This document shows, one piece after another, positions 31,792 through 60,029 of a stretch of DNA of 64,000 bases. Position 1 is the stretch's first letter. Each line of letters starts with the position of its first letter. The stretch is from Phycisphaeraceae bacterium (GTDB lineage: Bacteria; Planctomycetota; Phycisphaerae; Phycisphaerales; SM1A02). Below the pieces are notes generated by a model that saw only the letters and a list, made by a program, of their open reading frames with translations, was not told the origin of the DNA and did not search any database. The stretch covers positions 1 to 64,000 of the forward strand of contig JAHBWZ010000011.1 of assembly GCA_019636755.1 (NCBI GenBank). The letters run 5' to 3'. A program made the position numbers and the translations under genes.

Positions 31792-33378
31792 ATGCCGTTC
31801 CCGGTCCGGACCACCGGATCCGGTCGGTCGTCAGGTGTCGCGGTGCTCGCCTCCGCGCTGGTGATCGCGATAGGGATCGGAGGGTCCGGATGCGGGGAGG
31901 GCGCCCCTGATGCGGCCGGCGATCCTCCGGAGCATGCACCATCAACCGGCGCGATGACGCCCGATGCGGCCGCGCGCCGACCCGTCCAGCCCTCCGCGGG
32001 GGATGTCGGCACACCTCCGGCGCCGAGCCGTCCACAGGACCTCGGTCCTGACACGCGGTCGCGTGTGGAGTCGCTCCGGGCGCGGATCGAGGCCGAGCCG
32101 CGGAATGGCGACGCATGGCTGGATCTCGGCCGCCTCTTCCACGCGGCGCGGGAGTTCGATGCCGCGGCGCGGTGCTACGCCGCGTCCGATGCCCTGCTTC
32201 GCGACGCCGGCTCCGCCTATCTGCGCGCCCTGGTACTCGAACGGCTCAACCGGCGCGACGAGGCGGTTCCGCTGCTGCGAACGGCGATCGATCGGGATCC
32301 GATGCTCTCGACCGCCCGTTGGCACCTTGCGACGGCAATGCTGGAGTCCGGTGACATCGAGCGCGCGCTGGCAGAGGCGCGCGGTGCGATCACCGCCTGG
32401 CCCGATGACCCGGTTGCGCCGATCCTGCTGGCACGCGGCCTGCTCCAGGACGATCGGCCCGCCGAGGCGGCGGCGGTGCTGGAGGACTTCATCAGGACCC
32501 GGCCGGGTGACCGGCGAGCGCGGTGGCTGCTGGGCGTTGCGTACCGCGCGCTGGGGCGCGGCGAGGACGCCGCGCGGGAACAGGCGCTGGGACGTGGGGC
32601 GGGTGCGGACGGCTGGCCCGATCCGCTTCTGGACAGCGTCCGACGCCTCGTGACGCCGGACCGGGCGGCGCAGGTCGAGGCGATCGAGATGCTCCGGGCC
32701 GGCCGTGTGGACGAGGCCATCGTCGCGCTCCAGGCGGTGGTCCGGAAGGATGACCGGGATCTCGAAGCGCAGATCAATCTCGGCACAGCGCTCCGCCGCG
32801 CCATGCGACTGGACGAGGCCATCGAGGTGCTTGAGCACGCCATCCGGATCAACGAGACGCACGAGATGGCGCACTTCCACCTCGCGGGCGCGTGGAGGCA
32901 GAAGGCGATGCCGCGCGCGGATGTCCGGCCGGATGCGGCGATGCTGCAGCACGCGCTGGTGCACGTCGAAGACGTGATCCGTCTGAAGCCGACGTTCGCG
33001 CCGGGTCATGGACTGCGCGGCGAGATCCTGACGCTGATGGTCCGGCTGGACGAGGCACTGGAGAGCTACGCCGTGGCGGCGCGCCTCGATGATGCGAGTC
33101 CGCTCTGGCCGAATCGCCGCGGGATGATCCTGCTGGCGCTCGGCCGGTCGGAGTTGGCGGCGCTTGAGTTCAGGCTGCAGGGCGCCCGCGCTCCCATGGA
33201 TGCGCAGGCACGGCTTCACGAGGGAACCGCGTGGTTCCGCGCGGGGCGGCTTTCGGACGCGATGGCCGCGATCGACCAGGGCCTGGCGCTGGCGCCGGAG
33301 GACGCCGCGCTGCGTGCGCTGCAGGCGCAGGTCGATGCCGCGCGCGCCGCGGCGCCGGGGGGGGCGCCGGGCGGATGA
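31792..33378 (+). CDS. TPR-repeat lipoprotein
   Basis: A 528-residue exported protein. Signal segment SGVAVLASALVIAIGIGGSGC ends in a lipobox cysteine. After an Ala/Pro-rich linker, about ten TPR units run from about residue 75 to the C-terminus (for example AWLDLGRLFHAAREFDAAARCY, AQINLGTALRRAMRLDEAIEVL, AWFRAGRLSDAMAAIDQGLAL). TPRs provide protein-binding surfaces. The stop overlaps the ATG of the FG-GAP/ASPIC gene (ATGA at 33375), so the two products are probably made in equal amounts and may bind each other. The ATG at 31792 was chosen because it begins the signal sequence; the frame extends to 31702. Confidence 0.78.
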   Translation: MPFPVRTTGSGRSSGVAVLASALVIAIGIGGSGCGEGAPDAAGDPPEHAPSTGAMTPDAAARRPVQPSAGDVGTPPAPSRPQDLGPDTRSRVESLRARIEAEPRNGDAWLDLGRLFHAAREFDAAARCYAASDALLRDAGSAYLRALVLERLNRRDEAVPLLRTAIDRDPMLSTARWHLATAMLESGDIERALAEARGAITAWPDDPVAPILLARGLLQDDRPAEAAAVLEDFIRTRPGDRRARWLLGVAYRALGRGEDAAREQALGRGAGADGWPDPLLDSVRRLVTPDRAAQVEAIEMLRAGRVDEAIVALQAVVRKDDRDLEAQINLGTALRRAMRLDEAIEVLEHAIRINETHEMAHFHLAGAWRQKAMPRADVRPDAAMLQHALVHVEDVIRLKPTFAPGHGLRGEILTLMVRLDEALESYAVAARLDDASPLWPNRRGMILLALGRSELAALEFRLQGARAPMDAQARLHEGTAWFRAGRLSDAMAAIDQGLALAPEDAALRALQAQVDAARAAAPGGAPGG

Positions 33379-35273
33379 GCCGCGCTGCGCACGCGTGGGT
33401 GGTCGCGCTTGCCTGCACGGCGGCGGGATGCGATCGCGGCGATGCGGAGCCTTCGCCGGCAGTCTCCGATTCCGGGCGCGCGTCCAGGCTCGCACCTGGA
33501 CCGGTGGATCCGCGGCCGGAGCCGGGCGGCTCGCCGCTGGCCGGCGCCCGTGAGACGGAGGCCGCCGATCCGTGGTTCGTCGAGGAGGCTGCCTCGCGCG
33601 GCATTCACTTCCGGCATGTCTCCGGACAGGCGGGCGCCTACCTGATCCCGGAGATCATGGCCGGCGGCGCCGCGGCGATCGACGCGGACGGCGATGGCTG
33701 GCTGGATCTCTACTGCGTGCAGTCGGGCACGCTGGCGCTGGCCGCGGGTCCGACGGATGGGACCGACGAAGCGGTTCCGCCGCGACCGCGCAACCGGCTG
33801 TACAGGAACCTGGGCGCGGCGGGATTCGTCGATGTGACCGAGGGAAGCGGTGCGGACGATGCCGGGTACGGCATCGGATGCGCTTCGGCCGACTTCGATG
33901 GCGACGGGCGTCCCGATCTGTACGTCACGAACGTCGGTGCGAACGTCCTGCTCCGTAACGTCAGCACCAGCGCCGGCACCAGCGCCGGCACCAGCGCCGG
34001 AAGAGGGGACACGATCCGATTCGCGGATCACTCGGCCGCGGCCGGAGTCGATCACGCAGGCTTCGGCGCTGGCGCGGCGTTCTTCGATGGTGACGGCGAC
34101 GGGCACCTGGACCTCTTCGTGGTGAACTACCTGCTCTGGTCGCCCGCAACGGAACGGGCGTGCTACGACGACGCCGGAAAGCGGGACTACTGCAGCCCGG
34201 GCGCCTACAACGCGCCGGCGCCCGACGTGCTCTATCGCAATCGCGGTGACGGGACCTTCGAGGACGTTTCGGATGCCGCCGGAATCTCGGCGATCGCCGG
34301 AACCGGGCTGGGCATCGTCTGCGTGGACTTCACCGGAGACGGGCTGCCGGATGTCTTCATCGCGAACGACGGCATGCCTGACCGGCTGTGGGTGAACCTC
34401 GGCGGGATGCGGTTCCGTGACGAGGCTCTGCCGCGGGGATGCGCTGTCGATGAGAGCGGCGTCGCGAAGGCGGGCATGGGCGTCGCGGTTGCAGACCTGC
34501 ATGGCCAGGGCCGGTTCGACCTCATCGTCTGCAACCTCGTGCGCGAGACCGACTCACTCTTCCGCAACGACGGTGCGTGGTTCACGGACATCACGGCGCG
34601 AAGCGGCGTGGCGGGGGTGAGCCGCCACTTCACGCGGTTCGGCGTCGGCTTCGTCGACTTCGACAACGACGGCGAGTCGGATCTCTTCATGGCCTGCGGC
34701 CGCGTCGCGCGGGCGGAGCCCCTGTACGCGACGGACCCGTACGCGGAGCCGGATCTCCTGTTGCGCGGGCTGGGTGGCGGGCGGTTCGCGGAGCAGCTGC
34801 CGCGGGGCGGTTCACTGCCCGCGCGATACGGTGCCGGACGCGCGGCGGTATTCGGCGACTTCGACAACGATGGCGCCGTCGACATCGTCGTCATCCAGCG
34901 CGACGCGCCGCTGGTCTATCTCAGGAACGTCGCATCGGGCGGTCGCGCCTGGCTCATCGTCCGGGCGATCGACGGGCGCGGGCGCGACGCGATCGGGTCG
35001 ATCGTCACCGTGCATGCCGGGGACCGGTCCTGGCGGCGGCCGGTGCTCACCGCGTCCGGCTACCTCTCGGGACAGGACCCGCGGGTGCACTTCGGACTGG
35101 GCGATCATCGAACCGTGGATGCGATCGAGATCCGCTGGCCGGATGGCGCCGTCGAGCGGCTGGATCGACCGTCCGGAATCCCGGTCGACCGGCTCCTCAT
35201 CGCGCGGCGCGGATCGCCGGAGACATGGGACGTGCCGGACGACGCCCGGGCCGCGCACGTTTCCGGACGCTGA
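33375..35273 (+). CDS. FG-GAP/VCBS and ASPIC/UnbV repeat protein (lipoprotein)
   Basis: A 632-residue extracytoplasmic protein. A signal segment with a possible lipobox (ACTAAGC) is at the N-terminus. Calcium-binding FG-GAP repeats of the DxDGDGxxDL type occur throughout: AIDADGDGWLDLY, ADFDGDGRPDLYV, FFDGDGDGHLDLFVVNY, VDFDNDGESDLF and GDFDNDGAVDIVV. These form an integrin-alpha-like propeller. The C-terminus (about 520-610) is an ASPIC/UnbV domain, with RRPVLTASGYLSGQDPRVHFGLG and IEIRWPDGAVERL. A 12-base triplicated repeat encodes a Ser-Thr-Ala-Gly stretch (33961-34000). It is translationally coupled to the preceding TPR lipoprotein. Such proteins are surface-exposed; a specific ligand is unknown. 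Confidence 0.82.
   Translation: MSRAAHAWVVALACTAAGCDRGDAEPSPAVSDSGRASRLAPGPVDPRPEPGGSPLAGARETEAADPWFVEEAASRGIHFRHVSGQAGAYLIPEIMAGGAAAIDADGDGWLDLYCVQSGTLALAAGPTDGTDEAVPPRPRNRLYRNLGAAGFVDVTEGSGADDAGYGIGCASADFDGDGRPDLYVTNVGANVLLRNVSTSAGTSAGTSAGRGDTIRFADHSAAAGVDHAGFGAGAAFFDGDGDGHLDLFVVNYLLWSPATERACYDDAGKRDYCSPGAYNAPAPDVLYRNRGDGTFEDVSDAAGISAIAGTGLGIVCVDFTGDGLPDVFIANDGMPDRLWVNLGGMRFRDEALPRGCAVDESGVAKAGMGVAVADLHGQGRFDLIVCNLVRETDSLFRNDGAWFTDITARSGVAGVSRHFTRFGVGFVDFDNDGESDLFMACGRVARAEPLYATDPYAEPDLLLRGLGGGRFAEQLPRGGSLPARYGAGRAAVFGDFDNDGAVDIVVIQRDAPLVYLRNVASGGRAWLIVRAIDGRGRDAIGSIVTVHAGDRSWRRPVLTASGYLSGQDPRVHFGLGDHRTVDAIEIRWPDGAVERLDRPSGIPVDRLLIARRGSPETWDVPDDARAAHVSGR
33965..34003 (+). repeat. In-frame 12-base tandem repeat
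   Basis: Three head-to-tail copies of CACCAGCGCCGG-like units encode repeated T-S-A-G within the ASPIC gene at 33375. The unit is a multiple of 3, so the frame is kept; the number of copies could vary between strains. Confidence 0.7.
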
Positions 35274-35346: not shown

Positions 35347-35395
35347 CGACCGGGTGGTCCGTGCGGTGCATGGACCGCGCAGGAGGGAATCGCCC

Positions 35396-36673: not shown

Positions 36674-36704
36674 GCCGCCCCGGGGCATGCCGCCCCGGGG
36701 CGGC
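36674..36704 (+). terminator. Hairpin terminator after copy 3
   Basis: A perfect 12-bp stem (36674-36685 with 36693-36704) around a 7-base loop, 45 bases after the stop codon. No T-tract. Confidence 0.55.
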
Positions 36705-42573: not shown

Positions 42574-44322
42574 TCATCGCGTGACGTGGAGCCTTCGGCT
42601 GAAGTCGTCGCCGGAGAGATCGCGCCCGGTGATCGCGCCGTCGGGCCATCGGATCCGCAGCGCGGCGCCGCTCCAGGACGCGGGAATCCCGAAGTGTGCC
42701 GCCGGCGGGCCGGAGGACTGGAACCCGCCTCCGAAGATCCAGCGGGTCTGCCGCTCGTCGCCGCTGCTGAGCGTGACCGTCGCGCCCAGCGCCCGGCGGT
42801 TCCCGGGATTCCGCCCGTCATCGAGCGAAACGACGAGCCAGCGCCGGTCCCCGTGCGGCGTCGGACCGGCGAGCAGGCGCACCGGCGCGTTCAGTTCGCC
42901 GACGACGATGTCGATGGCCCCGTTCCCGTCGAGATCGGCGAAGACGGCGACGCGGTCGCGGCCCGGGCGTCTGAGCCAGGACTCCGGATCGCCGGATTCG
43001 ACACGGACGAACCGGCGTGCCTCGCGACGGAACACGAGCGGCGGCTGCTCATACTCGCTGTCCATCGTCTCCCGCTTCGCCTCCGGATAGACATGCCCGT
43101 TGAAACTGACCAGGTCCTCTGCACCGTCGAGATCGAGGTCCACGAAGGCGGCGGACCAGCCGAGGAACGGATGACTGATCTGACCCAGTCCCCATCGCCG
43201 GGTCTGGTCCTCGAAGAACCCTTCCGGGAGGTTGACGTGCAGCGTGTTCGTATCGCTGGAGAAGTTCGTGGTGAAGACATCCGGTCGCCCGTTCCCGGTC
43301 ACGTCTCCGATCGCGATGCCCATCGTCGCCTGGTCGTTCCCGTCGAAGTTCGATGCGATGCCGCTGGCGACGCCGATGTCGCGGAATCGCCACTCGCCCT
43401 CGTTCCGGAAGAGGAAGTTGGCCATCGAGTCGTTGCCGACGAAGATGTCCGGACGGCCGTCGCCGTCGAAGTCGAGGATGACCGCGCCGAGTCCGTACGC
43501 CGGACGGGGCGGAAGGCAGCCGGCGTCCGCCGTGACATCCCGGAAGCGACCGTCGCCCTCGTTGCGGTAGAGCACATCATGTTCCGCCGTGAGTCCGTGC
43601 GGGCCTCCCATGACGGTCTGTTCCTTGTACCGGGCGCGCGGCGGAGGTCGTTCGTGATCGAAGACGAGGTAGTTCACGACGTACAGGTCGAGCAGCCCGT
43701 CGAGATCGAGATCGCCGAACGCGGCGCTCGTCGCCCACCGCGGGTCGTTCACGCCGGACTCCGCGGCAGACTCGATGAATCGACCCGGCGCGTGCTGCCG
43801 GAACAGCGCGTTGGGGCCGTAGCAGCAGACGAAGACATCCTCACGGCCATCCGCGTCGACGTCCGCGGTCGCAGCGCCGAAGGACCAGCGCGTGTGCACC
43901 AGCCCCGACGGCCCGGTCACGTCCTCGAATCGCAGGCCTCCGAGATTCCGGAAGAGGCGGCTGCCCGGACCGTCTTCCGGCGCCGGAACCGTCGCGCCGT
44001 TCGCGATGAACAGGTCGAGGTGACCGTCGTCGTCGTAGTCGAAGAGCGCGAGGCCGCCGCCGTTGACTTCCAGGATCTCCCGCGCGGGGCGATCGCCGCT
44101 CACCATGCGCACGGACAGGCCGCTCTCCGCGGTGACGTCACGGAGTTCGAACCCGGGCGCCGGTGGATGGACGACCCCGCTGCGAGCGGGTGCCCGTTCC
44201 GCGGCGTCCGCGGATGACCGGTCGTTGCCATCGTCCCGCTTCGCGCACCCGCCGAGCAGCAGCGCGATCAGGATCACGAGGCGGGGTGGAGAAGCGGGGA
44301 GCCGCGGTGCGCTGTCGTTCAC
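42574..44322 (-). CDS. FG-GAP/VCBS and ASPIC/UnbV repeat lipoprotein
   Basis: A 582-residue predicted surface lipoprotein. The GTG start at 44322 overlaps the TPR gene stop (GTGA), giving a signal sequence (VILIALLLGGC) with a lipobox. FG-GAP repeats: LFDYDDDGHLDLFIANG, ADVDADGREDVFVCCYG, GDLDLDGLLDLYVVNYL, LDFDGDGRPDIFVGND, VDLDLDGAEDLVSFNG and ADLDGNGAIDIVVG. The C-terminal ASPIC/UnbV domain has WIFGGGFQSSGPPAAHFGI and LRIRWPDGAITGR. It is the same type as the gene at 33375, and the same pairing with a TPR lipoprotein is present on the opposite strand. Convergent with glmS. Confidence 0.8.
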   Translation of the reverse strand: MNDSAPRLPASPPRLVILIALLLGGCAKRDDGNDRSSADAAERAPARSGVVHPPAPGFELRDVTAESGLSVRMVSGDRPAREILEVNGGGLALFDYDDDGHLDLFIANGATVPAPEDGPGSRLFRNLGGLRFEDVTGPSGLVHTRWSFGAATADVDADGREDVFVCCYGPNALFRQHAPGRFIESAAESGVNDPRWATSAAFGDLDLDGLLDLYVVNYLVFDHERPPPRARYKEQTVMGGPHGLTAEHDVLYRNEGDGRFRDVTADAGCLPPRPAYGLGAVILDFDGDGRPDIFVGNDSMANFLFRNEGEWRFRDIGVASGIASNFDGNDQATMGIAIGDVTGNGRPDVFTTNFSSDTNTLHVNLPEGFFEDQTRRWGLGQISHPFLGWSAAFVDLDLDGAEDLVSFNGHVYPEAKRETMDSEYEQPPLVFRREARRFVRVESGDPESWLRRPGRDRVAVFADLDGNGAIDIVVGELNAPVRLLAGPTPHGDRRWLVVSLDDGRNPGNRRALGATVTLSSGDERQTRWIFGGGFQSSGPPAAHFGIPASWSGAALRIRWPDGAITGRDLSGDDFSRRLHVTR

Positions 44323-45293: not shown

Positions 45294-45757
45294 GAGCGGC
45301 GGGCGTTCCCCGGGCAGGTCCGGGAGTGTCCGCACCGGTCGCCCATGAAGCCGGCGGGCGTGCCCGTGGAATTGCTGGTGCTGCGTCATTCTGCCGGGGG
45401 AGTGCTGGATCGGTCGCGATATCACGGTATTCTGGTCGCCGGGGTTGTGCCGGCCGTTCGGATGGTGCAACCCTGATGGTGGGGCGGGTGGTATCGATGG
45501 ACTCCGACGCTGGCGTGTCGAGGCGCGGGCGGGTGATCGGTCACCCGGGTCCCGTCAGGCCGCCGGGACGGAGCCTGTCCCATCGGGTCGGAACGCGTGG
45601 TCCATCGGGCCTGCGCGTCCGGACCGACGCTCGGCTGTCAGGACTCGACGTGTTCATACTCGGCACCTCATCCGACCAGCACCCCGGGCTCCGGGGCGGC
45701 GTGCGCATCGGGTGCCCGGATCCACCGACTTCAGCGCCCGCCCCAAGGAACACCCCC
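45294..45757. other. Divergent intergenic region without supported gene
   Basis: 464 bases between the divergent TPR gene and the di-haem oxidoreductase gene. TATTCT at 45428-45433 could be a -10 element but has no convincing -35, and CATACT near 45655 is similarly weak. Open frames here are extensions of the flanking genes. No RNA structure is evident. Confidence 0.4.
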
Positions 45758-50077: not shown

Positions 50078-50113
50078 CACGGCGCCGCTCGCATGAGCGG
50101 CGCCGTGTCTTTT
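50078..50113 (+). terminator. Strong intrinsic terminator
   Basis: A perfect 13-bp stem (50078-50090 with 50095-50107), 4-base GCAT loop, followed by TCTTTT. This is the best classical terminator in the window, 30 bases after the VCBS-dockerin stop. Confidence 0.8.
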
Positions 50114-50210
50114 GCCCCGGGTTCGACGAGGGCGTCGAAGTCCACCGGCGTCCGGTATCATGCCGCCCGCGCTGTTCCTGTCTGCGGCGCCCGTGATCCG
50201 GAGTTCACCC

Positions 50211-51224
50211 GTGCCGGCCACTCCCTATGCCGCTGCCTGCCAGACGGCGTTCTCCTGTCCCACCGATCGATCGGAGATCGCAGCGAGAGTGGCGCACATG
50301 GTGGCGATGGCGGAGCATGCGATCGTCGGGTACGAGCCGTTCTTCGATGTGCGGCTGATCGTCTTCCCGGAGTTCGCCCATGCGGCGCCGGTCTACGGCT
50401 CGATCGCGGCGCTGCGGGAGAAACTCGCGGTCGAACTGCCCGGCGATCTCATCGACCCGTACGTGCGCGTCGCCCGGAAGTACGGGTGCTGGATCCAGAC
50501 CGGCTCGTTCATCGAGCGTGATGCACGCTGGCCGGACGCGCTCTTCAACTCGACCATGCTCATCGGGCCCGACGGGCCGCTGGCCCGGTACCGGAAGGTC
50601 AACCCATGGATCCCATGGGAACTCCACGCCAGTCCGCTTGACATCCCCGGATATCCCGATGACCCGTTTCCCGTGGTGGCCACCGACATCGGCCGGATCG
50701 GGACCGCCATCTGCTACGACTGGCTCTTCCCGGAGACGATCCGCGCGCTGGCATTCCGCGGTGCGGAGGTCCTCGTCCGCGTCTCGGCATACATGGACCC
50801 GTGGGGTGCGACGGCGCCGATGGACTGGTGGACGCTCTTCAATCGGGCGCGCGCCGTCGAGAACACGGCGATCGTCGTTGCGGCGAACCAGGGCGCTCAC
50901 CTCGACGGATACCCGCCGTTCTCCTGGCCGGGCGGCAGCATGATCGTGGACTGGGATGGCCGGGTGATGGCCCAGGCGGACCCCGGGCCGGGAGAGAAGA
51001 TCGTGGTGGGACCGATCGACGTGGCGTCGCTGCGGCGGGAGCGGGACCGGCGGATCGGTCACGACATGCGCGCGCACCTGCGGACCGGAATGCCGGGCGG
51101 CCGCGGCGTGCTGTCGCCCGCGGGGCTGCAGGAGATCACCGCAGCGACGGTCCGCGCCAGGATCGCCGCGGCGCGCGCCGCGCTCCGCGATGGATGCAGC
51201 GGAGCCACGGAAGTGAACCAATGA
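50211..51224 (+). CDS. Carbon-nitrogen hydrolase (nitrilase superfamily)
   Basis: A 337-residue nitrilase-family hydrolase. The catalytic triad is visible: Glu in LIVFPEFAHA, Lys in YRKVNPWIPWE and Cys in GTAICYDWLFPETI. The substrate could be a nitrile or an amide; the FPEFAH and YRKVNPW contexts fit amidases (such as formamidase or omega-amidase-like members) as well as nitrilases, so no substrate is assigned. The GTG at 50211 has GGAG 7 bases upstream and the protein then starts PATPYAAACQTAF, as in the family; longer in-frame starts are not favoured. It overlaps the next gene by ATGA at 51221, forming an operon with the TPR/FG-GAP fusion and ArgR. Confidence 0.82.
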   Translation: MPATPYAAACQTAFSCPTDRSEIAARVAHMVAMAEHAIVGYEPFFDVRLIVFPEFAHAAPVYGSIAALREKLAVELPGDLIDPYVRVARKYGCWIQTGSFIERDARWPDALFNSTMLIGPDGPLARYRKVNPWIPWELHASPLDIPGYPDDPFPVVATDIGRIGTAICYDWLFPETIRALAFRGAEVLVRVSAYMDPWGATAPMDWWTLFNRARAVENTAIVVAANQGAHLDGYPPFSWPGGSMIVDWDGRVMAQADPGPGEKIVVGPIDVASLRRERDRRIGHDMRAHLRTGMPGGRGVLSPAGLQEITAATVRARIAAARAALRDGCSGATEVNQ

Positions 51225-54200
51225 AGCAACCACGACGCCACCTTCCGGCCATCGCCGTCGCCGTCCTCGCCGCGCTCGGGGCCGTCGGCTGCCGACGGTC
51301 CGAGCCATCGCCCGCACCGCCGCCGAAGCCGCCGGCCGTGACCGCGGCAGAGATGCAGCAGAACGACATCGCGGTCGGACTCATGGGCCAGTACCGGTAC
51401 GACGAGGCCCTGGCGATCTTCAGGGAACTCGCCGACGCGCATCCGGGGCATCCGGAACTGCACGTCAATCTGGCCATTGCCACGCTCAATCGGCAGGAGG
51501 AGCAGGACGAGCAGGCGGCCATCGGGATACTCCGGCGCGTGCTGTCCGGGGCGCCGGCGCATGCGCGGGCCAGGTACGTCCTGGCGCTCCTTCTGTTCCG
51601 CAACGGCGAGAACGAGGAAGCGGAGACGCTGCTCAGGGCGGTGGCCGCGCAGGATCCGACCGACGGCTACGTGCAGTACTTCCTGGGGCAGGTGATCGAG
51701 TCACGCGATCCGCCCGCCGCGGAAGCGGCGTACCGCGAAGCACTGCGACTCGAGCCGTATCTGCGCAGCGCGGCATTCCGCCTCTCGAGCATCCTCCGGC
51801 GGGCAGGAGACGATCGGGAGGCGGAGCAGTTCCTGGACCTGTTCATCCGCCTGGAGTCCAATCCCCGCGCGCGCACGGCGAGGTACGTGTACTCCGAGAT
51901 GGGCACCATGGCCGATGCGATGGCGCTCGGGCCGTCGCCGGCGGCGCGGCGACCCCGGCCTGCAGGCGGACTCTTCGAACCGCCGGTGCCGATCCCGGTC
52001 GACGCTGACGACGTGGTGTGGCGACCGGCGGCGGACGGCGCGCCACCGTCCATCAGCGCGTGCGATCCGACGGGTGACGGGCGCCTGCTCATCTTCATCG
52101 CTGACGCGGTCAGGGATGCCGACGACGCCAACGCGGTGCTCGTGGCCGAGGCGCCGGATCGATTCAGGCTGGATCGCACCAGCATCCTGTCGAAGGTGAC
52201 CCAGGTGCGCGCGGCGCTCTTCGGCGACTACGACAACGACGGGCTCATCGACGTCTATCTGTGCCGGCGCGGCCCCAATCAGCTCTGGCGACGGGACGGC
52301 GATGGCGACTGGTGGAACGGGGCGTGGATCGATGTCACCGGGACTTCCATGACCGACGGGGGCGTGTTCGACACCATCGACGGCGTCTTCGCCGACCTGG
52401 ATCACGACGGAGATCTCGATCTTCTCCTGGCGAATGCCGACGGGCCGACCGTCCTGCTCTCGAACAACCGGGACGGCACATTCCGCCGGCTCGGCGCGGA
52501 GCACGGCCTGGACTTCTCTGCCGCCGGTGCACATCGCGTCCTGGCGGCGGATCTCGACGGCGATCGCGACCTGGACTTCATCGTCCTCCGCGCGTCAGGA
52601 CGGCATGAGGTCTGGCGGAACGACAGGCTCTGGACCTGGTCCCGCGATGTCGCGTTCGCGGCCTTCGAGGCATCGCCCGCGCGTACGGTCGTTGCCGCGG
52701 ATCCGGACGCGACGGGGCGCATGGAACTCGTTGCCGTGGAGGCATCCGGGCACGCCGTCCGCTGGTCGTGGGACGGCACCGGACTGGTCCGATCGCCCAT
52801 CGGCGCCGTCGCCACGACGCCGGTCGACTTCGCGGTGCTGGATATCACCGGTGACGGCGCGCCCGGTGTGCTCGTGCCGGATGGCGAACAGTGGCGGGTC
52901 GTGGATCCATCCGCCGGCGCGGGTGACGGGCAGGTGTCCGTGTCCGCACGCGGCGTGTGGGCGCCGGTGCTGCTGGATCCTGCCCGTGGACCTGCGATCG
53001 TCGGGATGGACCCGGGTGGCCCGCCGCGCCTCTGGCGGGCGGGGGATGGACGACACCCGTTCACGGCCGTGCGGCTGCTCGGCCGTGACGATCCAGGGAA
53101 CTCGCTCCGGACGAACGCCGCGGGCATCGGCGCGCAGGCGCAGGCGCGCGTCGGTGGTCGCTGGGTCGCGCTCCCCGGAATCAGCGCGACTTCGCTCCCG
53201 GGTCAGTCCTACGGCCCGGCGGCGGTCGGCCTGGCCGGGTTCGAGGCACTGGACCTCGTGCGGATCGACTGGCCTGACGGCGTGTTCCAGACGGAGGTCG
53301 CGGGCGTGGCGCCCGGCGTCTCCGATCCGCCGCGACTGTTCAGCGCCGGGCGCACGACGGTCATCGCCGAGACGCAGCGCCAGGTCTCCAGCTGCCCGGT
53401 GCTGTTCGCCTGGGACGGGTCCCGATTCGTATTCATCAGCGACGTCCTGGGCGTGGGTGGCATGGGGTACCTGCTCGAACCCGGCGTGTATGCGGAGCCG
53501 CGCCCATGGGAACGGTTCCAGTTCCCGCCGGGCCTTCCGGTCGCGCGGGATGGGCGCATCGCGATCAAGCTCGCGGAGCCGATGGAGGAGACGCTCTATC
53601 TCGATGCCCTGACGATGGTCGCCTACGACCTTCCTGAAGGATGGTCGCTGGTGCTCGACGAGCGCATGCAGACCGGGTTGCCGACCGTGACGGGCGAGAC
53701 GCGTTTCTATCGAGAGGAACGGCGAATCACCCGGGCCGTCGACGCCGACGGCCGTACCGTGACGACACGCCTCCGGGAATCCGACGGCGTCGCGCCCGGA
53801 CTTCCGGAGTCCGATCGGCGGTTCATCGGTCTGCTCAGTCGGCCGCAGGTCCTGACGATGGAGTTCGACGGGCCGCTGGATCGCTGGACCGACCCGTCGG
53901 CCGAGTCGATGCTCATCATCGACGGCTGGGTGGAGTATCCCTACTCGCAGACCATGTTCGCAGCATGGCAGGCCGGCGTTGTGTACGAAGCCCCGACGGT
54001 CGAAGCCCGTCGCGCCGACGGCGCGTGGATCCCGGTGCTCGAGAAGTTCGGGTATCCCGCCGGGTTTCCACGGCGCATGTCGGTGGCGCTGGAGGGCCTG
54101 CCCGAGGGCTGCACCGCGCTGCGCCTGACGACGACACAGGAGATCTACTTCGATCGAGTCGTCGTGGCGGGCGCGGAGACGCCGCCTGATGACCTTGTGG

Positions 54201-54661
54201 TCCATCGCCTCACCGCGGCGGAAGCGCGCGTCGCCAGCATCGGCTTCCCCCACCGCAGCGATGGTCCGCAGCGACGGCCGCAGTACGACTACGAGCGTCG
54301 CGCGGGCGCGTGGGACACGCGGATCCAGCGGGGCTGGTACACCGAGCCCGGTCCCGCGCTCCCCCTGGTCGCCGCGGTCGACGGGGCGCTTGCCATTATC
54401 GGCCCCGGGGACGAGGTCCACGTGGAGTTCGAGGCACCCGCGTCGCCGACCCCCGGATTCGAGCGGACATTCGTCCTGGAGTGCCATGGCTGGTGCAAGG
54501 ACATGGATCTCTTCACGCGACACGGAGAAACCGTCGAACCACTTCCTGTGCAGACCATGCCCGACCCATCTCGCCCGGTGCTCCCGGGGGGCGCCCGCTC
54601 CGCCGCGGCGCTCCATGAGCAGTTCAACCGCCGATTCCAGTCCGGTCGGGCGGGGCGGTGA
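51221..54661 (+). CDS. TPR plus FG-GAP fusion lipoprotein
   Basis: An 1146-residue protein with a lipobox cysteine C24 (AALGAVGC). Residues about 40-215 hold TPR units (GQYRYDEALAIFRELADAHP, FLGQVIESRDPPAAEAAYREAL). From about 260 to 690 are FG-GAP repeats (GDYDNDGLIDVYLC, ADLDHDGDLDLLLAN, ADLDGDRDLDFIVL, LDITGDGAPGVLV). An ASPIC/UnbV-like segment follows at about 630-700 with VRIDWPDGVFQTEV. The C-terminal domain from about 725 begins with CPVLFAWDGSRFVFISDVLG and carries LAEPMEETLYLDALTMVAYD; similar C-terminal domains occur in other TPR/FG-GAP proteins (from memory). It combines in one chain what the neighbouring loci keep as TPR-lipoprotein and ASPIC genes. It overlaps the nitrilase gene (ATGA) and ArgR begins 4 bases after its stop. 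Confidence 0.78.
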   Translation: MKQPRRHLPAIAVAVLAALGAVGCRRSEPSPAPPPKPPAVTAAEMQQNDIAVGLMGQYRYDEALAIFRELADAHPGHPELHVNLAIATLNRQEEQDEQAAIGILRRVLSGAPAHARARYVLALLLFRNGENEEAETLLRAVAAQDPTDGYVQYFLGQVIESRDPPAAEAAYREALRLEPYLRSAAFRLSSILRRAGDDREAEQFLDLFIRLESNPRARTARYVYSEMGTMADAMALGPSPAARRPRPAGGLFEPPVPIPVDADDVVWRPAADGAPPSISACDPTGDGRLLIFIADAVRDADDANAVLVAEAPDRFRLDRTSILSKVTQVRAALFGDYDNDGLIDVYLCRRGPNQLWRRDGDGDWWNGAWIDVTGTSMTDGGVFDTIDGVFADLDHDGDLDLLLANADGPTVLLSNNRDGTFRRLGAEHGLDFSAAGAHRVLAADLDGDRDLDFIVLRASGRHEVWRNDRLWTWSRDVAFAAFEASPARTVVAADPDATGRMELVAVEASGHAVRWSWDGTGLVRSPIGAVATTPVDFAVLDITGDGAPGVLVPDGEQWRVVDPSAGAGDGQVSVSARGVWAPVLLDPARGPAIVGMDPGGPPRLWRAGDGRHPFTAVRLLGRDDPGNSLRTNAAGIGAQAQARVGGRWVALPGISATSLPGQSYGPAAVGLAGFEALDLVRIDWPDGVFQTEVAGVAPGVSDPPRLFSAGRTTVIAETQRQVSSCPVLFAWDGSRFVFISDVLGVGGMGYLLEPGVYAEPRPWERFQFPPGLPVARDGRIAIKLAEPMEETLYLDALTMVAYDLPEGWSLVLDERMQTGLPTVTGETRFYREERRITRAVDADGRTVTTRLRESDGVAPGLPESDRRFIGLLSRPQVLTMEFDGPLDRWTDPSAESMLIIDGWVEYPYSQTMFAAWQAGVVYEAPTVEARRADGAWIPVLEKFGYPAGFPRRMSVALEGLPEGCTALRLTTTQEIYFDRVVVAGAETPPDDLVVHRLTAAEARVASIGFPHRSDGPQRRPQYDYERRAGAWDTRIQRGWYTEPGPALPLVAAVDGALAIIGPGDEVHVEFEAPASPTPGFERTFVLECHGWCKDMDLFTRHGETVEPLPVQTMPDPSRPVLPGGARSAAALHEQFNRRFQSGRAGR

Positions 54662-54664
54662 CGC

Positions 54665-55132
54665 ATGGCAAGGGCAGGCGATCGAGATCAGCGGCAGGAC
54701 GCCATCCGGGAGCTGGTGGTCCGCAACGAGATCCACAGCCAGGATGAAATGGGTGCGTTGCTGGCGACGGAAGGCATCACCGTGACCCAGGCCACCCTCT
54801 CCCGCGACCTGCGCGAGATGGGGGTCCGCAAGCAGGGCGGGCTCTATCGGCTTCCGGAACTCCCCAAGGAGGCGATCCGCCGCCGACGGAGGGTGTTCCG
54901 GGAGCTGGCCGGAATGGTCCAGACCGTCTCACGGGGCGGGACCATCGTGGTGCTCCGTGCCCGCGTCGGCCAGGCGCCGGCCCTGGCCCTGGCCGTCTAT
55001 CAGGGAGAGTTCGTCGAGGTGATCGGTGCGGTGGCCGATGTAAACACGGTCCTCGTGGCGTGCGGGACTGCGGCACAGGCTCGCACGTTTGCGCGAGGCG
55101 TCGACGAGGCGATCGTGTTGCGCGGCCTCTGA
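54665..55132 (+). CDS. argR: Arginine repressor
   Basis: A 155-residue ArgR-type transcriptional regulator of arginine biosynthesis and breakdown. The N-terminal winged helix-turn-helix has IRELVVRNEIHSQDEMGALL and GITVTQATLSRDLREMGVRK, where SR of TLSRDL is the family DNA-contact motif. The C-terminal oligomerisation/arginine-binding region has GEFVEVIGAVADVNTVLVACGT and ends with helix AQARTFARGVDEAIVL. In E. coli the arginine-binding Asp residues sit in the GTIAGDDT segment; here the corresponding GAVADVNT retains only one Asp, so arginine sensing may differ. It lies 3 bases after the fusion lipoprotein, an unusual neighbour for argR, with no arg biosynthesis genes in view. Confidence 0.85.
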   Translation: MARAGDRDQRQDAIRELVVRNEIHSQDEMGALLATEGITVTQATLSRDLREMGVRKQGGLYRLPELPKEAIRRRRRVFRELAGMVQTVSRGGTIVVLRARVGQAPALALAVYQGEFVEVIGAVADVNTVLVACGTAAQARTFARGVDEAIVLRGL

Positions 55133-55294: not shown

Positions 55295-58168
55295 ATGGCA
55301 GCCATACCAGAAACTCGCGTGCCGCCCCCGGGCCGGAAGAGGTACGTCCCGGCCGTCGGGCCGAAGCTCAAGAAGCTTCTCGCCGTCGTCTTCGCGCTCT
55401 TCGCCCTGCTGGTGGTGAACTCCGTCTACCTGCTGAGCGTGACGATCGCGGGCGTGCGGTTTCAGAATTGGTTCTACCTGAACATGTTCCTGCTGCACCT
55501 GGTGCTCGGCCTCGCCATCGTGGTGCCGGTCATCGTGTTCGGGGTGCTCCACATCCGCAATGCCAGGAACCGTCCGAACCGCCGGGCGATCCGGGCGGGG
55601 TATGCCCTCTTCGCGGCGGCGATCCTCATTCTGCTGTCCGGGTTCGTGCTGACCCGCGTGGATCTCTTCGGCCTCCGTTTCGAGGTGAACCAGCCCACGC
55701 TGCGGGGGGTCGCGTACTGGATGCACGTGCTCTGTCCGGCACTGGCGATCTGGCTCTTCGTGCTGCATCGACTGGCCGGGCGCCGCATCCGGTGGCGGGT
55801 CGGGCTCGCCTGGAGCGCGGTCGCCGCGGTCTTCGCCGGCGGCATGCTGATCCTGCAGGCGCAGGACCCCAGGGCCTGGGACGTGGTCGGACCCGAGTCG
55901 GGCGAGCGGTACTTCTTTCCTTCGCTCGCCCGGACATCGACCGGCAACTTCATCCCTGCGGAGGTGCTCGACAACAGCGATTACTGCATGGAGTGCCACC
56001 GGGATGTCCACGACCAGTGGACGCACAGCGTGCACCGGTTCGCGTCGTTCAATAACCCGGCGTACCTCTTCAGCGTGAAGGAGACGCGCCGGGACATGAT
56101 GGCGCGGGACGGGAACGTCCACGGCGCCCGCTTCTGCGCGGGCTGTCACGACCCCGTCCCGTTCTTCAGCGGCGCCTTCGACCATCCCCGCTTCGATGAT
56201 CCCGAATACGACCTTGCCGGTGACCCGATGGCCATGGCGGGCATCACCTGTTCGGTCTGCCATGCGATCTCGAATGTCAACAGTGTCCGGGGAAACGCGG
56301 ACTACACGATCGACGAGCCGATTCACTACCCGTTCACGTACAGCAGCAATCCATTCTTCCGATGGATCAACCGGCAGCTCATCAAGGCCAAGCCTGAATT
56401 CCACAAGGCCACGTTCCTGAAGCCGCTTCACCGGACGACGGAGTTCTGCAGCACCTGCCACAAGGTCCACCTCCCGGAGGAACTCAACGCGTACAAGTGG
56501 CTGCGCGGCCAGAATCACCACGATGCCTTCTGGCTCAGTGGTGTGTCCGGATACGGCGTGACCTCGTTCTACTACCCTCCGCAGGCCGAGCCCAACTGCA
56601 ATCAGTGCCACATGCCCCTCCGGGAGGTGAGTCCGGCGCCGAACTTCAGCGCGCGCGTCCGCGATGACTCCGGCGTGCCGAAGACGCTTGACCACATGTT
56701 CCCCTCCGCCAACACGGCGATTCCGTTCCTGCTCAGAGACCAGATGCGGGATGCGGACGCCGCGATCGAGGCGCACAAGGCGTTCAACGAGGGTGTCATG
56801 CGACTCGACATCTTCGGGCTCCGCCGCGGGGGTCGAATCGACTCCGAGATCATCGCACCGATCCGCCCGGAGGTTCCAGCGCTCGAGCGAGGCGGAACCT
56901 ACCTGCTCGAGACCGTGATCCGCACCGTCAGGATGGGACATGTCTTCACGCAGGGGACCGCCGATTCCAACGAAGTCTGGATGGAAGTGACGGTGCGGAC
57001 CGGGGGAGAAGTGATCGGTGCCAGCGGCTGGCGCGATCCGCGCGATGAATCGGTCGATCCCTGGTCACACTTCGTGAACGTGTTCATGCTTGATCGGGAC
57101 GGCAACCGGATCAACCGGCGGAACGCGGAAGACATATTCGTTCCGCTCTACAACAACCAGATCCCGCCGGGCGCGGCGGCGGTCGTGCACTATCGTCTCC
57201 AGGTGCCGCCCGACACCGTCGACCCGGTCGAAGTGCATGTGCGACTCCTGTACCGCAAGTTCGATACCGAGTACATGCGACTCGTGCATGGGGGGGACGA
57301 TTCGTATCGGAATGAACTGCCGATCATGGTGCTCGCCGAGGATCGCGTGACGTTTCCGGTCGAGGGCCGCGACCACATGGTCCGGAATGCGGAGTCCCCG
57401 ATCGAGCGGTGGCAGCGCTGGAACGACTACGGCATCGGACTGCTGCTGAAGGGTCAGTCGGGCGAACTGCGGCAGGCGCTTGCCGCGTTCCAGGAAGTCG
57501 AGCGGCTCGGTCGGCCGGATGGTCCGCTCAACCAGGCCCGCACCTACATCCGCGAGGGACTGATCCAGACGCACGCACCGGAGGCACTCCGCCGGGCGCT
57601 GGAGTTCAACCCGCCCGCCAACGAGTGGTCCGTGCTCTGGTTCGGTTCGGAGGTGGCCATGCGGAACGGAGATTTCGACCGGGCGATCGCCAACCTCCGG
57701 GACATCATCCGGGGCGGATTCCGCCAGGCCCACGGCCGTGGATTTGACTTCTCGAAGGACTACCGGGTGCACATCTCACTCGGGAATGCGCTGTACCAGC
57801 GTGCGCTCCAGGAGCGCGGCGAACGTCGGGACGCGATGATGCGGGAGGCCGTCGAGGCATTCGAGACCGCACTCGGCTATGAGCCCGAGGATCTCTCTGC
57901 GCACTACGGCATCGCACAGGCCTTCGCCGCGCTGGGAGAGACGGTCCTCGAGGAGAAGCACCGCGCGCTCCACGCGAAGTACAAGCCGGATGACAATGCA
58001 CGGGACTACGCCGTTGCACGCGCGCGGCTCCAGTATCCAGCGGCGAATCATGCGGCCGAAGCAGTGGTGATCTACGACCTGCAGCGGGCCGGGGCCATCG
58101 GTCTGCCTGACCTGGTCGCGCGTCTGTCCCGTGCAAGGAGCCTGGCCGATGACGACACACGGAACTGA
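55295..58168 (+). CDS. Membrane pentahaem cytochrome c with TPR C-terminus
   Basis: A 957-residue protein. The N-terminal about 190 residues hold five hydrophobic segments (27-49, 60-85, 101-120, 139-160, 168-188), with histidines H68, H86, H144 and H158 near the helices. Five CxxCH motifs follow: CMECH (231-235), CAGCH (281-285), CSVCH (319-323), CSTCH (385-389) and CNQCH (435-439), each able to hold a c-type haem; further His residues could be distal ligands. From about 540 to 700 the chain is beta-rich. The last about 260 residues contain TPR-like units (LGNALYQRALQERGERRDAM, YGIAQAFAALGETVLEEK). This suggests electron transfer across or at the outside of a membrane, with TPRs for partner binding. 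The stop overlaps the next gene by 20 bases. Confidence 0.85.
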   Translation: MAAIPETRVPPPGRKRYVPAVGPKLKKLLAVVFALFALLVVNSVYLLSVTIAGVRFQNWFYLNMFLLHLVLGLAIVVPVIVFGVLHIRNARNRPNRRAIRAGYALFAAAILILLSGFVLTRVDLFGLRFEVNQPTLRGVAYWMHVLCPALAIWLFVLHRLAGRRIRWRVGLAWSAVAAVFAGGMLILQAQDPRAWDVVGPESGERYFFPSLARTSTGNFIPAEVLDNSDYCMECHRDVHDQWTHSVHRFASFNNPAYLFSVKETRRDMMARDGNVHGARFCAGCHDPVPFFSGAFDHPRFDDPEYDLAGDPMAMAGITCSVCHAISNVNSVRGNADYTIDEPIHYPFTYSSNPFFRWINRQLIKAKPEFHKATFLKPLHRTTEFCSTCHKVHLPEELNAYKWLRGQNHHDAFWLSGVSGYGVTSFYYPPQAEPNCNQCHMPLREVSPAPNFSARVRDDSGVPKTLDHMFPSANTAIPFLLRDQMRDADAAIEAHKAFNEGVMRLDIFGLRRGGRIDSEIIAPIRPEVPALERGGTYLLETVIRTVRMGHVFTQGTADSNEVWMEVTVRTGGEVIGASGWRDPRDESVDPWSHFVNVFMLDRDGNRINRRNAEDIFVPLYNNQIPPGAAAVVHYRLQVPPDTVDPVEVHVRLLYRKFDTEYMRLVHGGDDSYRNELPIMVLAEDRVTFPVEGRDHMVRNAESPIERWQRWNDYGIGLLLKGQSGELRQALAAFQEVERLGRPDGPLNQARTYIREGLIQTHAPEALRRALEFNPPANEWSVLWFGSEVAMRNGDFDRAIANLRDIIRGGFRQAHGRGFDFSKDYRVHISLGNALYQRALQERGERRDAMMREAVEAFETALGYEPEDLSAHYGIAQAFAALGETVLEEKHRALHAKYKPDDNARDYAVARARLQYPAANHAAEAVVIYDLQRAGAIGLPDLVARLSRARSLADDDTRN

Positions 58169-60029
58169 CCGGGGGCACGGGCAGAACGTCCCGGCATCCG
58201 CGGACGAATACGTCGCCGCCGATGACGCGATCATCGGCCGCGCGTTCCGCTGGTCCCTGGTCGGGTTCGCGGTTCTCGCCGCCGCGATCGTCACGGTGCT
58301 CATGCTCCGGCGGGATCCGACGCCGGAGTCGAAGGTGATCGACCGCGGCACGATCGTTCCGGCCGAGGATCTCGCGCCTTCCCGGGACGCGATGCCCGTG
58401 ATCCGGTTCACGGACATCACGGAGGCCGCGGGCATCACCTTCCGGCAGTATGGTGGCGCGACCGGGGAGAAGCTGCTGCCGGAGACCATGGGCGGCGGCG
58501 TGGCGTTCCTCGACTACGACAACGACGGTCGACCGGATCTTCTCCTGGTCAACGGGATGGACTGGCCGGACCGTCCGCCGACGGGGCGTCGATATCACTC
58601 GGCGCTCTATCGCAACCTCGGAGACGGGCGCTTCCGGGAGGTGACCGACGAGGTCGGCCTGGACTTCGAACTGCAGGGGATGGGCATCGCCGTCGGTGAC
58701 TACGACGCGGACGGCAATGTCGATGTCTACCTCACGGCGGTCGGCCCCAACCGGCTTCTCGGCAACAGCGGGGGACGGTTCGAGGACCGGACGGCCGAGG
58801 CAGGCGTCGCCGGTGGCGACCGCGACTGGTCGACCAGTGCGGGGTTCGTCGACTATGACCGGGACGGCGCCCTGGATCTTTTCGTGTGCAACTACGTCGA
58901 GTGGTCGCGCGAGATCGATCTCCGCCTGAACTTCTCGCTCAACGGCGTCGATCGTGCGTATGGGCCACCGACGCTGTATCGCGGCACGAATTCCGTTCTC
59001 TATCGCAACGCCGGGGGCAGTCGATTCATCGACGTCTCCGCGCATGCCGGCATTCATGTGATCAATCCGGCCCAGGGCGCGCCGATGGGCAAGGGGCTGG
59101 CGGTCATCTTCCGCGACATCGACGACGACGGCTGGATGGACATCCTTGTCGCGAACGATACGGTGCAGAACTTCCTGTTCCGGAACATGAAGGACGGGAC
59201 CTTCACGGAGGTCGGAACCCGCGCGGGCGTGGCGTTCGACCCGATGGGGACGGCAACCGGGGCGATGGGCATCGACGTTGAGGAATTCGCCAACGACGGT
59301 CGACTGGCGATCGGCATCGGGAATTTCGCGAACGAGGCAACATCGTTCTTCGTGCAGTCGCCGGACCGTCCATGGCAGTTTGCGGACACGGCCGGTGCGG
59401 AGGGCGTCGGCTCGCCGAGCAGGCTCCGCCTCTCCTTCGGGCTGTTCTTCTTCGACGCGGATCTGGACGGCCGGCCCGACCTGCTCCAGGCAAACGGCCA
59501 CATCGAGGATGAGATCAACGAAGTCCAGCCAAGCCAGACGTACCGGCAACCGGCCCAGCTCTTCTGGAACCGCGGGCCCGAGCATCGCGCGTGCTACACG
59601 GTCATGCCCGACGACCGCACCGGTGACCTCGGGCGACCGATCGTCGGGCGCGGCGCTGCCTACGCGGACATCGATGGCGACGGGGATCTCGATGTCATCC
59701 TCACACAGGTGGATGGACCTCCGCTGCTGCTCCGCAACGACCAGGCGACCGGGCACCACTGGCTGCGCGTCCGGCTCCGCGGCGATGACGGCAATCCCGC
59801 CGGCATCGGCGCGCGGATCGAACTGACCGCGGGTGGCGTCACGCAACGGCGGGTCGTGATGCCGACGCGGAGTTACCTGTCGCAGGTCGAGCCGCTCGCG
59901 ACGTTCGGGCTCGGGTCGACGGCGGCCGTGGACACCGTCGAAGTCGTATGGCCGGATGGTGCCCGACAGCGCGTCGATGTCCCGGGCGTCGACCGCGAGA
60001 TCGAAGTGCGGCGGCAGCGCGAGGGATAG
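58149..60029 (+). CDS. Membrane-anchored FG-GAP/ASPIC protein
   Basis: A 626-residue protein. ATG 58149 has AAGGAG 8 bases upstream and lies inside the previous gene (overlap of 20 bases). An N-terminal transmembrane helix is at about 31-50 (WSLVGFAVLAAAIVTVLML). FG-GAP repeats: LDYDNDGRPDLLLVNG, GDYDADGNVDVYLTAVG, VDYDRDGALDLFVCNY, RDIDDDGWMDILVAND, FDADLDGRPDLLQANG and ADIDGDGDLDVILT. The C-terminus is an ASPIC/UnbV domain with MPTRSYLSQVEPLATFGLG and VEVVWPDGARQRV. It is coupled to the pentahaem-TPR cytochrome, the fourth TPR/FG-GAP pairing in the window and the only one tied to haems. It is anchored by a helix rather than a lipid. Confidence 0.82.
   Translation: MTTHGTDRGHGQNVPASADEYVAADDAIIGRAFRWSLVGFAVLAAAIVTVLMLRRDPTPESKVIDRGTIVPAEDLAPSRDAMPVIRFTDITEAAGITFRQYGGATGEKLLPETMGGGVAFLDYDNDGRPDLLLVNGMDWPDRPPTGRRYHSALYRNLGDGRFREVTDEVGLDFELQGMGIAVGDYDADGNVDVYLTAVGPNRLLGNSGGRFEDRTAEAGVAGGDRDWSTSAGFVDYDRDGALDLFVCNYVEWSREIDLRLNFSLNGVDRAYGPPTLYRGTNSVLYRNAGGSRFIDVSAHAGIHVINPAQGAPMGKGLAVIFRDIDDDGWMDILVANDTVQNFLFRNMKDGTFTEVGTRAGVAFDPMGTATGAMGIDVEEFANDGRLAIGIGNFANEATSFFVQSPDRPWQFADTAGAEGVGSPSRLRLSFGLFFFDADLDGRPDLLQANGHIEDEINEVQPSQTYRQPAQLFWNRGPEHRACYTVMPDDRTGDLGRPIVGRGAAYADIDGDGDLDVILTQVDGPPLLLRNDQATGHHWLRVRLRGDDGNPAGIGARIELTAGGVTQRRVVMPTRSYLSQVEPLATFGLGSTAAVDTVEVVWPDGARQRVDVPGVDREIEVRRQREG

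What the first reader, a model, noticed from the sequence alone, without database searches (positions are those of the whole stretch)
31792..60029. Four TPR/FG-GAP (ASPIC) pairings, with a natural fusion as Rosetta stone
TPR lipoprotein and ASPIC/FG-GAP genes are coupled by ATGA at 33375 and GTGA at 44319-44322. A pentahaem cytochrome-TPR gene overlaps an ASPIC gene by 20 bases at 58149-58168, and at 51221-54661 both modules are in one 1146-residue chain. Independent repetition plus the fusion supports a physical TPR/FG-GAP complex outside the cytoplasm. The overlaps are seen directly; the complex itself is inference.
Basis: partly seen in the sequence, partly recalled or inferred. Interest (0 to 1): 0.68.

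Follow-up and report, generated by a model that had tools for sequence, protein, structure and literature searches.

The report
Propeller–TPR pairs beside membrane haem protein
In this planctomycete, and in distant bacteria from several phyla, genes for a helical docking protein and a propeller protein are kept side by side, or fused, next to a membrane multi-haem electron-transfer protein, which points to an undescribed electron-transfer assembly in the cell envelope whose job is still unknown.

Summary
In detail: ATGA at 33375, GTGA at 44322-44319, a 20-base overlap at 58149-58168 and a 1146-residue TPR/FG-GAP fusion at 51221-54661. The pairings are not independent repeats: three of the four (and pair A in some relatives) belong to one syntenic cluster with a nitrilase, a di-haem oxidoreductase, another FG-GAP protein and a five-haem membrane cytochrome. 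In 31 related genomes 36 of 112 called non-fusion ASPIC genes touch a TPR gene; 0 of 128 control genes are TPR. The link is clade-specific: 31 of 31 testable genes in one ASPIC clade, 0 of 58 outside the linked clades, with one exception (L139) among genes not in the tree. Adjacency survives five changes of gene order on the tree and spans several phyla. The window fusion is no strict Rosetta stone: fusions form a separate clade and no split orthologue was seen. Better evidence: the TPR module sits on the cytochrome, at either end of ASPIC proteins, or on a 4Fe-4S protein in a second operon here. Best reading: an envelope redox assembly in which TPR docks ASPIC propellers to a multi-haem cytochrome. 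Contact and substrate are inferred. Seven literature queries showed no description.

The parts
31792..33378 (+). TPR lipoprotein of pair A
   Evidence: PF13432 94.6 bits on the longer ORF 31702-33378; hydrophobic N-terminus with Cys
33375..35273 (+). ASPIC/FG-GAP lipoprotein of pair A, ATGA overlap with the TPR gene
   Evidence: PF13517 119.1 bits, PF07593 68.1 bits on the ORF 33231-35273; junction; lipobox-like N-terminus
42574..44322 (-). ASPIC/FG-GAP lipoprotein of pair B, GTGA overlap
   Evidence: PF13517 140.7, PF07593 44.0 bits on the ORF 42574-44829; lipobox LGGC
44319..45470 (-). TPR protein of pair B (longest ORF; an LAAGC lipobox-like stretch lies inside, seen by eye; the rule did not reach it)
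   Evidence: PF13432 45.5 bits; conserved beside the ASPIC gene in relatives
45758..47494 (+). di-haem oxidoreductase, cluster member (ORF opens at 45326)
   Evidence: PF06537 111 bits on the ORF 45326-47494; same cluster in six relatives and L057
47610..50048 (+). second FG-GAP protein without ASPIC, 812 aa, cluster member
   Evidence: PF13517 87.2 bits; conserved beside the di-haem gene
50112..51224 (+). carbon-nitrogen hydrolase (nitrilase family; longest ORF, true start probably later)
   Evidence: PF00795 126.8 bits; ATGA overlap with the fusion at 51221-51224
51221..54661 (+). TPR + FG-GAP + ASPIC-like + unassigned C-terminal part, one chain of 1146 aa, lipobox-like N-terminus
   Evidence: PF14559 and PF13517; model: helices 42-212, CRTAC1-like 248-719, beta-rich from about 720; N-terminus
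54665..55132 (+). ArgR-like regulator inside the cluster
   Evidence: PF01316 63.6 bits; an ArgR gene in the same slot in L073
55295..58168 (+). membrane cytochrome: five predicted N-terminal helices, five CxxCH, beta domain, C-terminal TPR
58149..60029 (+). ASPIC/FG-GAP protein with an N-terminal hydrophobic anchor, 20-base overlap with the cytochrome gene
   Evidence: PF13517 106.7, PF07593 73.2 bits on the ORF 58131-60029; N-terminus

Best explanation
The TPR and ASPIC/FG-GAP genes encode a coupled envelope module that serves a membrane-bound multi-haem electron-transfer assembly. The cytochrome (five N-terminal helices, five c-type haem sites, C-terminal TPR) and its ASPIC partner are anchored in the cytoplasmic membrane facing out; many of the TPR/ASPIC pairs and most of the TPR-ASPIC fusions look like lipoproteins. 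The TPR superhelix is the docking part that holds an ASPIC propeller against the redox subunits; which subunit carries the TPR is interchangeable. Shown: genes, overlaps, conserved cluster, clade-specific adjacency, changes of gene order with adjacency kept, relocation of the TPR module. Predicted by simple rules or models: N-terminal signals, helices. Inferred: contact between the chains, the direction of electron flow, and the substrate.
For: Cluster conserved in relatives and across phyla, e.g. six co-directional genes nitrilase-fusion-cytochrome-ASPIC-ASPIC-TPR in Thioalkalivibrio sp. XN8 with three 4-base overlaps. 36 of 112 called non-fusion ASPIC genes touch a TPR gene against 0 of 128 control genes; 7 of 16 more in loci that the gene caller missed. 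By clade in the 31-genome set: TPR clade 29 of 32 labelled TPR, plus L147 (TPR gene 50 bp upstream) and L128 (uncalled TPR ORF, E 1e-23), one cut by a contig end; cytochrome clade 15 of 15 testable; outside 0 of 58. Pfam on 69 same-strand neighbours of the outside genes lists no TPR family among the 25 shown, which include all matched by two or more. Five changes of gene order inside the TPR clade. TPR on other chains. Lipobox-like N-termini in 66 of 86 fusions and 38 of 58 TPR-labelled ASPIC proteins, against 5 of 128 control genes.
Against: No contact was tested; co-transcription or a shared pathway would give the same genomics. Four of 35 fusion loci with at least 6 kb on both sides show no ASPIC, cytochrome or TPR gene (L037, L054, L084, L088). 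In G077 and G093 the cytochrome and the (distant) fusions lie on different contigs. L139 is an ASP33-type ASPIC gene without a TPR neighbour; L096_16683 is another. In L191, L043 and L122 a cytochrome/ASPIC pair shows no TPR in the stretch seen. TPR is a promiscuous domain. Only 5 of 81 genomes of the class hold a fusion match and 3 of 81 a cytochrome match at E<=1e-60, so it is an accessory trait.
Confidence: 0.55

Rival explanations
1. The TPR/ASPIC proteins are assembly or maturation factors (as BamB propeller and BamD TPR lipoproteins serve beta-barrel assembly; recalled) that insert or mature the cytochrome or an outer-membrane partner, without being part of the working complex.
For: Propeller plus TPR lipoproteins is the architecture of such factors (recalled); many chains look like lipoproteins.
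Against: TPR is covalently part of the cytochrome in the 12 aligned orthologues (one of them cut) and of the fusion in 74 of 75 called chains, which suits a stable subunit better than a transient helper.
Confidence: 0.25
2. Shared pathway without contact: the genes are co-regulated parts of one process, for example uptake or oxidation of one nitrogenous substrate, acting in sequence.
For: The nitrilase lies next to the fusion in 16 of 35 loci with full flanks, and an ArgR-like gene lies inside the cluster.
Against: Four-base overlaps, changes of order with adjacency kept, and relocation of the TPR module are more than a shared pathway needs.
Confidence: 0.3
3. Chance or promiscuity: TPR and FG-GAP are common domains and meet by accident; the fusion is one accident.
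For: Both families are common; at least 38 TPR frames in this genome.
Against: P about 1e-7 in this genome alone; 36/112 against 0/128, Fisher 3e-14; 0 of 58 in the other ASPIC clades.
Confidence: 0.02
4. A mobile island that travels as a block: adjacency is inherited hitch-hiking.
For: Patchy distribution (5 of 81 in the class) over several phyla.
Against: Gene order and module position vary while partners stay together. Mobility genes were not searched for.
Confidence: 0.08

Closest known systems
CRTAC1 / UnbV-ASPIC family (PF07593, PF13517; mouse CRTAC1 structure 9etn)
   Same: Propeller plus ASPIC domain; the fusion model aligns to 9etn_A over 248-719 with Z 31.6, rmsd 3.0, 435 residues
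   Different: Bacterial, lipoprotein-like or membrane-anchored chains coupled to TPR and multi-haem cytochromes; the family names seen give no function
Hydrazine-synthase-like clusters with a CRTAC1 gene (PMC12758564; one section and one passage read)
   Same: An FG-GAP gene annotated CRTAC1 lies beside genes for homologues of HZS subunits, in members of several clades including Planctomycetota; one of our relatives (G001) has a propeller-CCP protein with a weak hit to HZS-beta (E 0.042) beside its ASPIC gene
   Different: The cytochrome and the 812-aa FG-GAP protein of the window show no HZS hit; that paper's main text has no occurrence of TPR or tetratricopeptide
MamA and PilF (TPR proteins)
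   Same: TPR fold of the fusion and of the cytochrome tail
   Different: Shared fold only; NCBIfam MamA score far below its cut-off
Multi-haem cytochromes of the c554/MtrC kind and MccSep (PDB 9wt8)
   Same: Haem-binding part matches weakly
   Different: Below Pfam cut-offs in the window protein; the membrane helices and TPR tail lie outside the matched part

Membership tests
UnbV_ASPIC (PF07593) | Score over the curated cut-off, 23.4 bits, for the three separate ASPIC genes | tested here: met
   Window genes 33375, 42574 and 58149: 68.1, 44.0, 73.2 bits
UnbV_ASPIC (PF07593) | Same, for the fusion 51221-54661 | tested here: not met
   No hit at E<=0.01; some related fusions do score and the fold matches CRTAC1
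Rosetta-stone pair (fusion of two genes that are separate elsewhere) | Split orthologues of the window fusion exist | tested here: not met
   74 of 75 called fusion chains match the profile from its TPR part on, one is cut by a contig end; one search listed the best 80 of 255 loci only. Five complete distant relatives keep TPR (L210, L212, L213, L214 by profile; L211 by Pfam); L215 begins at a run of N
Rosetta-stone pair (fusion of two genes that are separate elsewhere) | For the cytochrome/ASPIC partners: TPR as a part of different chains in different genomes | tested here: met
   TPR on the cytochrome, on the ASPIC C-terminus (L046, L069), on the ASPIC N-terminus (L042)
Tetratricopeptide repeat | Pfam TPR over cut-off in the cytochrome tail | tested here: inconclusive
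   26.8 bits against 32.7; the family profile matches designed TPR proteins, E 2e-29; predicted helical repeats
Hydrazine synthase complex | Similarity of window proteins to HZS chains | tested here: inconclusive
   No HZS hit for the 812-aa FG-GAP protein or the cytochrome; the other window proteins were not searched against the PDB by sequence
c-type cytochrome | CxxCH motifs conserved in orthologues | tested here: met
   Five CxxCH, their Cys and His invariant in 12 sequences
Membrane b-type cytochrome domain | Haem b bound by conserved His of the N-terminal helices | not testable with these tools
   Invariant H68, H86, H144, H158; binding is inference

The most novel reading that the evidence does not exclude
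An undescribed, widespread envelope electron-transfer complex (nitrilase - TPR/ASPIC fusion - five-haem membrane cytochrome - ASPIC, with TPR/ASPIC lipoprotein pairs and at times a di-haem oxidoreductase), built on a TPR-to-ASPIC docking principle in which the TPR part can sit on any subunit.
Probability: 0.4. Interest if true: 0.75.

Novelty: new variant of a known kind. Interest (0 to 1): 0.58.

Why it matters
For ASPIC/CRTAC1 propellers and the TPR proteins beside them, the family libraries and papers seen here give no role. A clade-specific, cross-phylum link to a membrane multi-haem cytochrome gives them a testable one, and hosts whose records are not MAGs (Thioalkalivibrio sp. XN8, Wenzhouxiangella sediminis) make it testable at the bench.

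Tried and rejected
Rejected: chance co-occurrence; the idea that TPR goes with every ASPIC protein; the fusion as a direct fusion of one of the window's pairs. Hydrazine synthase as the identity of this cluster found no support (no hit for two window proteins; a weak hit in a neighbour gene of a relative), but it is not excluded.

Led nowhere: Rfam on the window (0 matches); literature. Seven searches were answered. (FG-GAP + tetratricopeptide + cytochrome terms) held no paper. Of the rest I saw listings (15 of 37 papers) and, in detail, one section and one passage of PMC12758564 and passages of PMC3909097; none described this cluster.

Limits: genes come from my own codon-usage caller, and its start sites are guesses. 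It failed on low-GC loci: 18 of 119 relative loci gave no ASPIC gene, 13 of them (GC 0.42-0.46) fetched for an ASPIC match; plain ORFs rescued 16 more ASPIC ORFs (one, L025, probably a cut fusion), 7 with TPR, but these are not in the tree. Five of 80 named loci gave no fusion call. Named loci were chosen by fusion patterns, so only the 31-genome set is unbiased for the TPR statistic. MAG names (e.g. 'Halobacteria') may be mis-binned. The 128 control genes come from 9 regions of 20 kb in six genomes that I placed by hand. My TPR profile misses some TPRs: the 4Fe-4S protein of L002, L211, and 10 of 75 fusions. The rule for a hydrophobic N-terminus is weak: 44 of 128 control genes pass it. In the careful tree the second cytochrome-linked group (L002, L046, L191) and three unlinked rows (L001, L068, L123) branch at a weakly supported fork (85/86), so the 115-row clade is not recovered as such there.
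Full report
Observation. The window is G000:C3:1-64000 of a 4.1-Mb genome in 20 contigs. Two relatives that carry the cluster are probably named: L085 and L107, both Phycisphaerales records, have the contig lengths of our G007 and G004 contigs. PF07593 itself does not score in the window's fusion, but the predicted fold of residues 248-719 is that of CRTAC1.

One cluster, not four events. In relatives the same genes recur as a block: nitrilase - fusion - five-haem cytochrome - ASPIC, with FG-GAP/di-haem oxidoreductase and the TPR/ASPIC pair B on the far side (G001, G002, G005, G006, G013, G017; in G002 the contig ends after the TPR gene, and no nitrilase was called in G001), and pair A beside the nitrilase in G004 and G007. 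A planctomycete MAG (L057) has pair B, di-haem, FG-GAP, nitrilase, fusion, cytochrome and ASPIC in a row. A pattern scan found 255 loci encoding a relative of the fusion in the GTDB-based collection; the best 80 were kept. By record titles these are 36 Pseudomonadota, 33 Planctomycetota, 4 Acidobacteriota and 7 others or unassigned. Of 75 loci with a called fusion, 35 have at least 6 kb on both sides; of these 30 hold a separate ASPIC gene, 25 a relative of the cytochrome (22 close ones), 24 a separate TPR gene, 16 an adjacent nitrilase, and 4 none of ASPIC, cytochrome or TPR. In Thioalkalivibrio sp. XN8 six genes run head to tail with three 4-base overlaps.

PF07593 rings in 25 of 31 genomes. 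I fetched every place listed there (the window covers its own) and called 125 ASPIC genes, 13 of them fusions. Of 112 others, 36 touch a TPR gene. By position: upstream 32 of 108, downstream 6 of 107; two genes up 7 of 99, two down 0 of 92; three up 5 of 85, three down 4 of 76. The same profile finds TPR in 0 of 128 genes of nine control regions (Fisher 3e-14). Loci missed by the caller add 16 ASPIC ORFs, 7 with a TPR neighbour, and one clear exception of the TPR-linked type (L139).

The link follows phylogeny. In a tree of 264 rows (FastTree) all ASPIC genes labelled with a TPR or cytochrome neighbour fall in one clade of 115 (58 TPR, 49 cytochrome, 5 unknown, 3 none). In the 31-genome set: TPR clade 29 of 32, and two of the other three have a TPR neighbour on inspection (L147; L128), the third being cut by a contig end; cytochrome clade 15 of 15 testable, one unknown; outside 0 of 58, four unknown. 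Pfam on 69 complete same-strand neighbours of the outside genes lists no TPR family among the 25 families shown of 75; these include every family matched by two or more members, so a single TPR match could be hidden. In a careful tree of 43 chosen rows the window-type TPR and cytochrome clades group together at 99/98 and the fusions stand apart at 100/100, while the second cytochrome-linked group (L002, L046, L191) and three unlinked rows are not resolved from them. The separate genes therefore share ancestry, and the fusion family is an older or independent coupling.

Changes of order. Over all 67 rows of the TPR clade the TPR gene lies upstream in 46, downstream in 14, on both sides in 2, and was not called beside 5 (of which L128 has an uncalled TPR ORF, L042 carries TPR in its own chain, two are at contig ends, and L096_16683 lacks one); the FastTree tree needs 5 changes of order; 13 of 51 upstream and 7 of 17 downstream same-strand TPR-bearing neighbours overlap by exactly 4 bases. 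TPR subfamily follows ASPIC subfamily: 44 pairs TPR32/ASP33, 15 TPR44/ASP42, 5 TPR44/ASP33.

The TPR module moves. In the 12 aligned orthologues, one of them cut, TPR ends the cytochrome. In L046 and L069 the cytochrome lacks it and the ASPIC protein carries it at its C-terminus; in L042 it is at the N-terminus of an ASPIC protein. In a second operon of this genome (G000:C14, L002) a five-haem cytochrome without TPR is preceded by a protein with Fer4_5 and 4Fe-4S domains that ends in TPR, and followed by ASPIC. Against this, in L191, L043, L062 and L122 neither the cytochrome nor the ASPIC chain shows TPR by my profile; L191 and L043 are short contigs (4.4 and 8.2 kb), and in L062 a TPR gene lies two genes from the cytochrome. 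This is better evidence for a coupled assembly than the window's fusion, for which no split orthologue was seen: 74 of 75 called chains match the fusion profile from its TPR part on, and five complete distant relatives keep TPR.

Location and parts. By crude rules, not a trained predictor: lipobox-like N-termini in 66 of 86 fusions, 38 of 58 TPR-labelled ASPIC proteins, 21 of 61 TPR partners, 6 of 62 unlinked ASPIC proteins and 5 of 128 control genes; a merely hydrophobic N-terminus in 35 of 61 TPR partners, 42 of 43 ASPIC partners of the cytochrome, 48 of 62 unlinked ASPIC proteins and 44 of 128 control genes. The cytochrome model (mean pLDDT 73.0) has five N-terminal helices, a beta domain and helical repeats 705-920; the Cys and His of five CxxCH and four His of the helices are invariant in 12 sequences. 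That c-type haem is attached outside the cytoplasm is established knowledge. The fusion model (mean pLDDT 74.7, pTM 0.54) shows TPR helices, a CRTAC1-like part and a C-terminal beta-rich part, without a reliable statement on how they pack.

Mechanism and confidence. I commit to a TPR-docked ASPIC propeller assembly serving a membrane multi-haem cytochrome (0.55). Contact, electron route and substrate are inference. The nitrilase and the ArgR-like gene hint at a nitrogenous substrate or its regulation, but only weakly.

Against it. The trait is patchy: 5 of 81 genomes of the class have a fusion match and 3 of 81 a cytochrome match at E<=1e-60. In G077 and G093 the cytochrome and the distant fusions lie on different contigs. 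Four full-flank fusion loci lack all partners nearby.

Prior knowledge. Of the papers seen, PMC12758564 (one section and one passage) reports an FG-GAP gene annotated CRTAC1 beside genes for homologues of hydrazine synthase subunits, and PMC3909097 (passages) lists TPR and ASPIC domains in Poribacteria without linking them in what I saw. The searches are listed under Tried and rejected; most papers of subscription journals are not in that library.

Noticed in passing
window 54665-55132: ArgR-like regulator (PF01316, PF02863) between the fusion and the cytochrome; an ArgR gene sits in the same slot in L073, and a 154-aa gene not scanned in L080.
   Followed up: partly
L009:4761-7439 (-): 892-aa beta-propeller plus CCP_MauG protein convergent with the ASPIC gene of pair B in G001, with a weak hit to hydrazine synthase beta (5c2v_B, E 0.042; CCP_MauG just under its cut-off).
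   Followed up: partly
L079:20410-23151 and L212:749-3682: Chains with ten CxxCH next to ASPIC genes, in a Desulfobacteraceae MAG (cut by the locus end) and in a genome of the window's class.
   Followed up: no
L108:6395-10186, L123:3953-7561, L138:3980-7723: Proteins of about 1200-1260 aa with two PF07593 matches in one frame and no TPR neighbour by profile.
   Followed up: no
window 26892-28124, 28199-30031, 35354-36628: Three genes sharing a DRVSASEKGSLL stretch near the N-terminus, so probably paralogues; the one at 35354 lies between pair A and a Porin_O_P gene (36687-38321).
   Followed up: no
L008:8405-8803, L010:7875-8267, L014:4906-5298, L018:7158-7556: A 130-132-aa gene with one CxxCH upstream of the cluster in several relatives; the L008 copy is a 2Fe-2S ferredoxin (PF00111), so the motif there is unlikely to bind haem.
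   Followed up: partly
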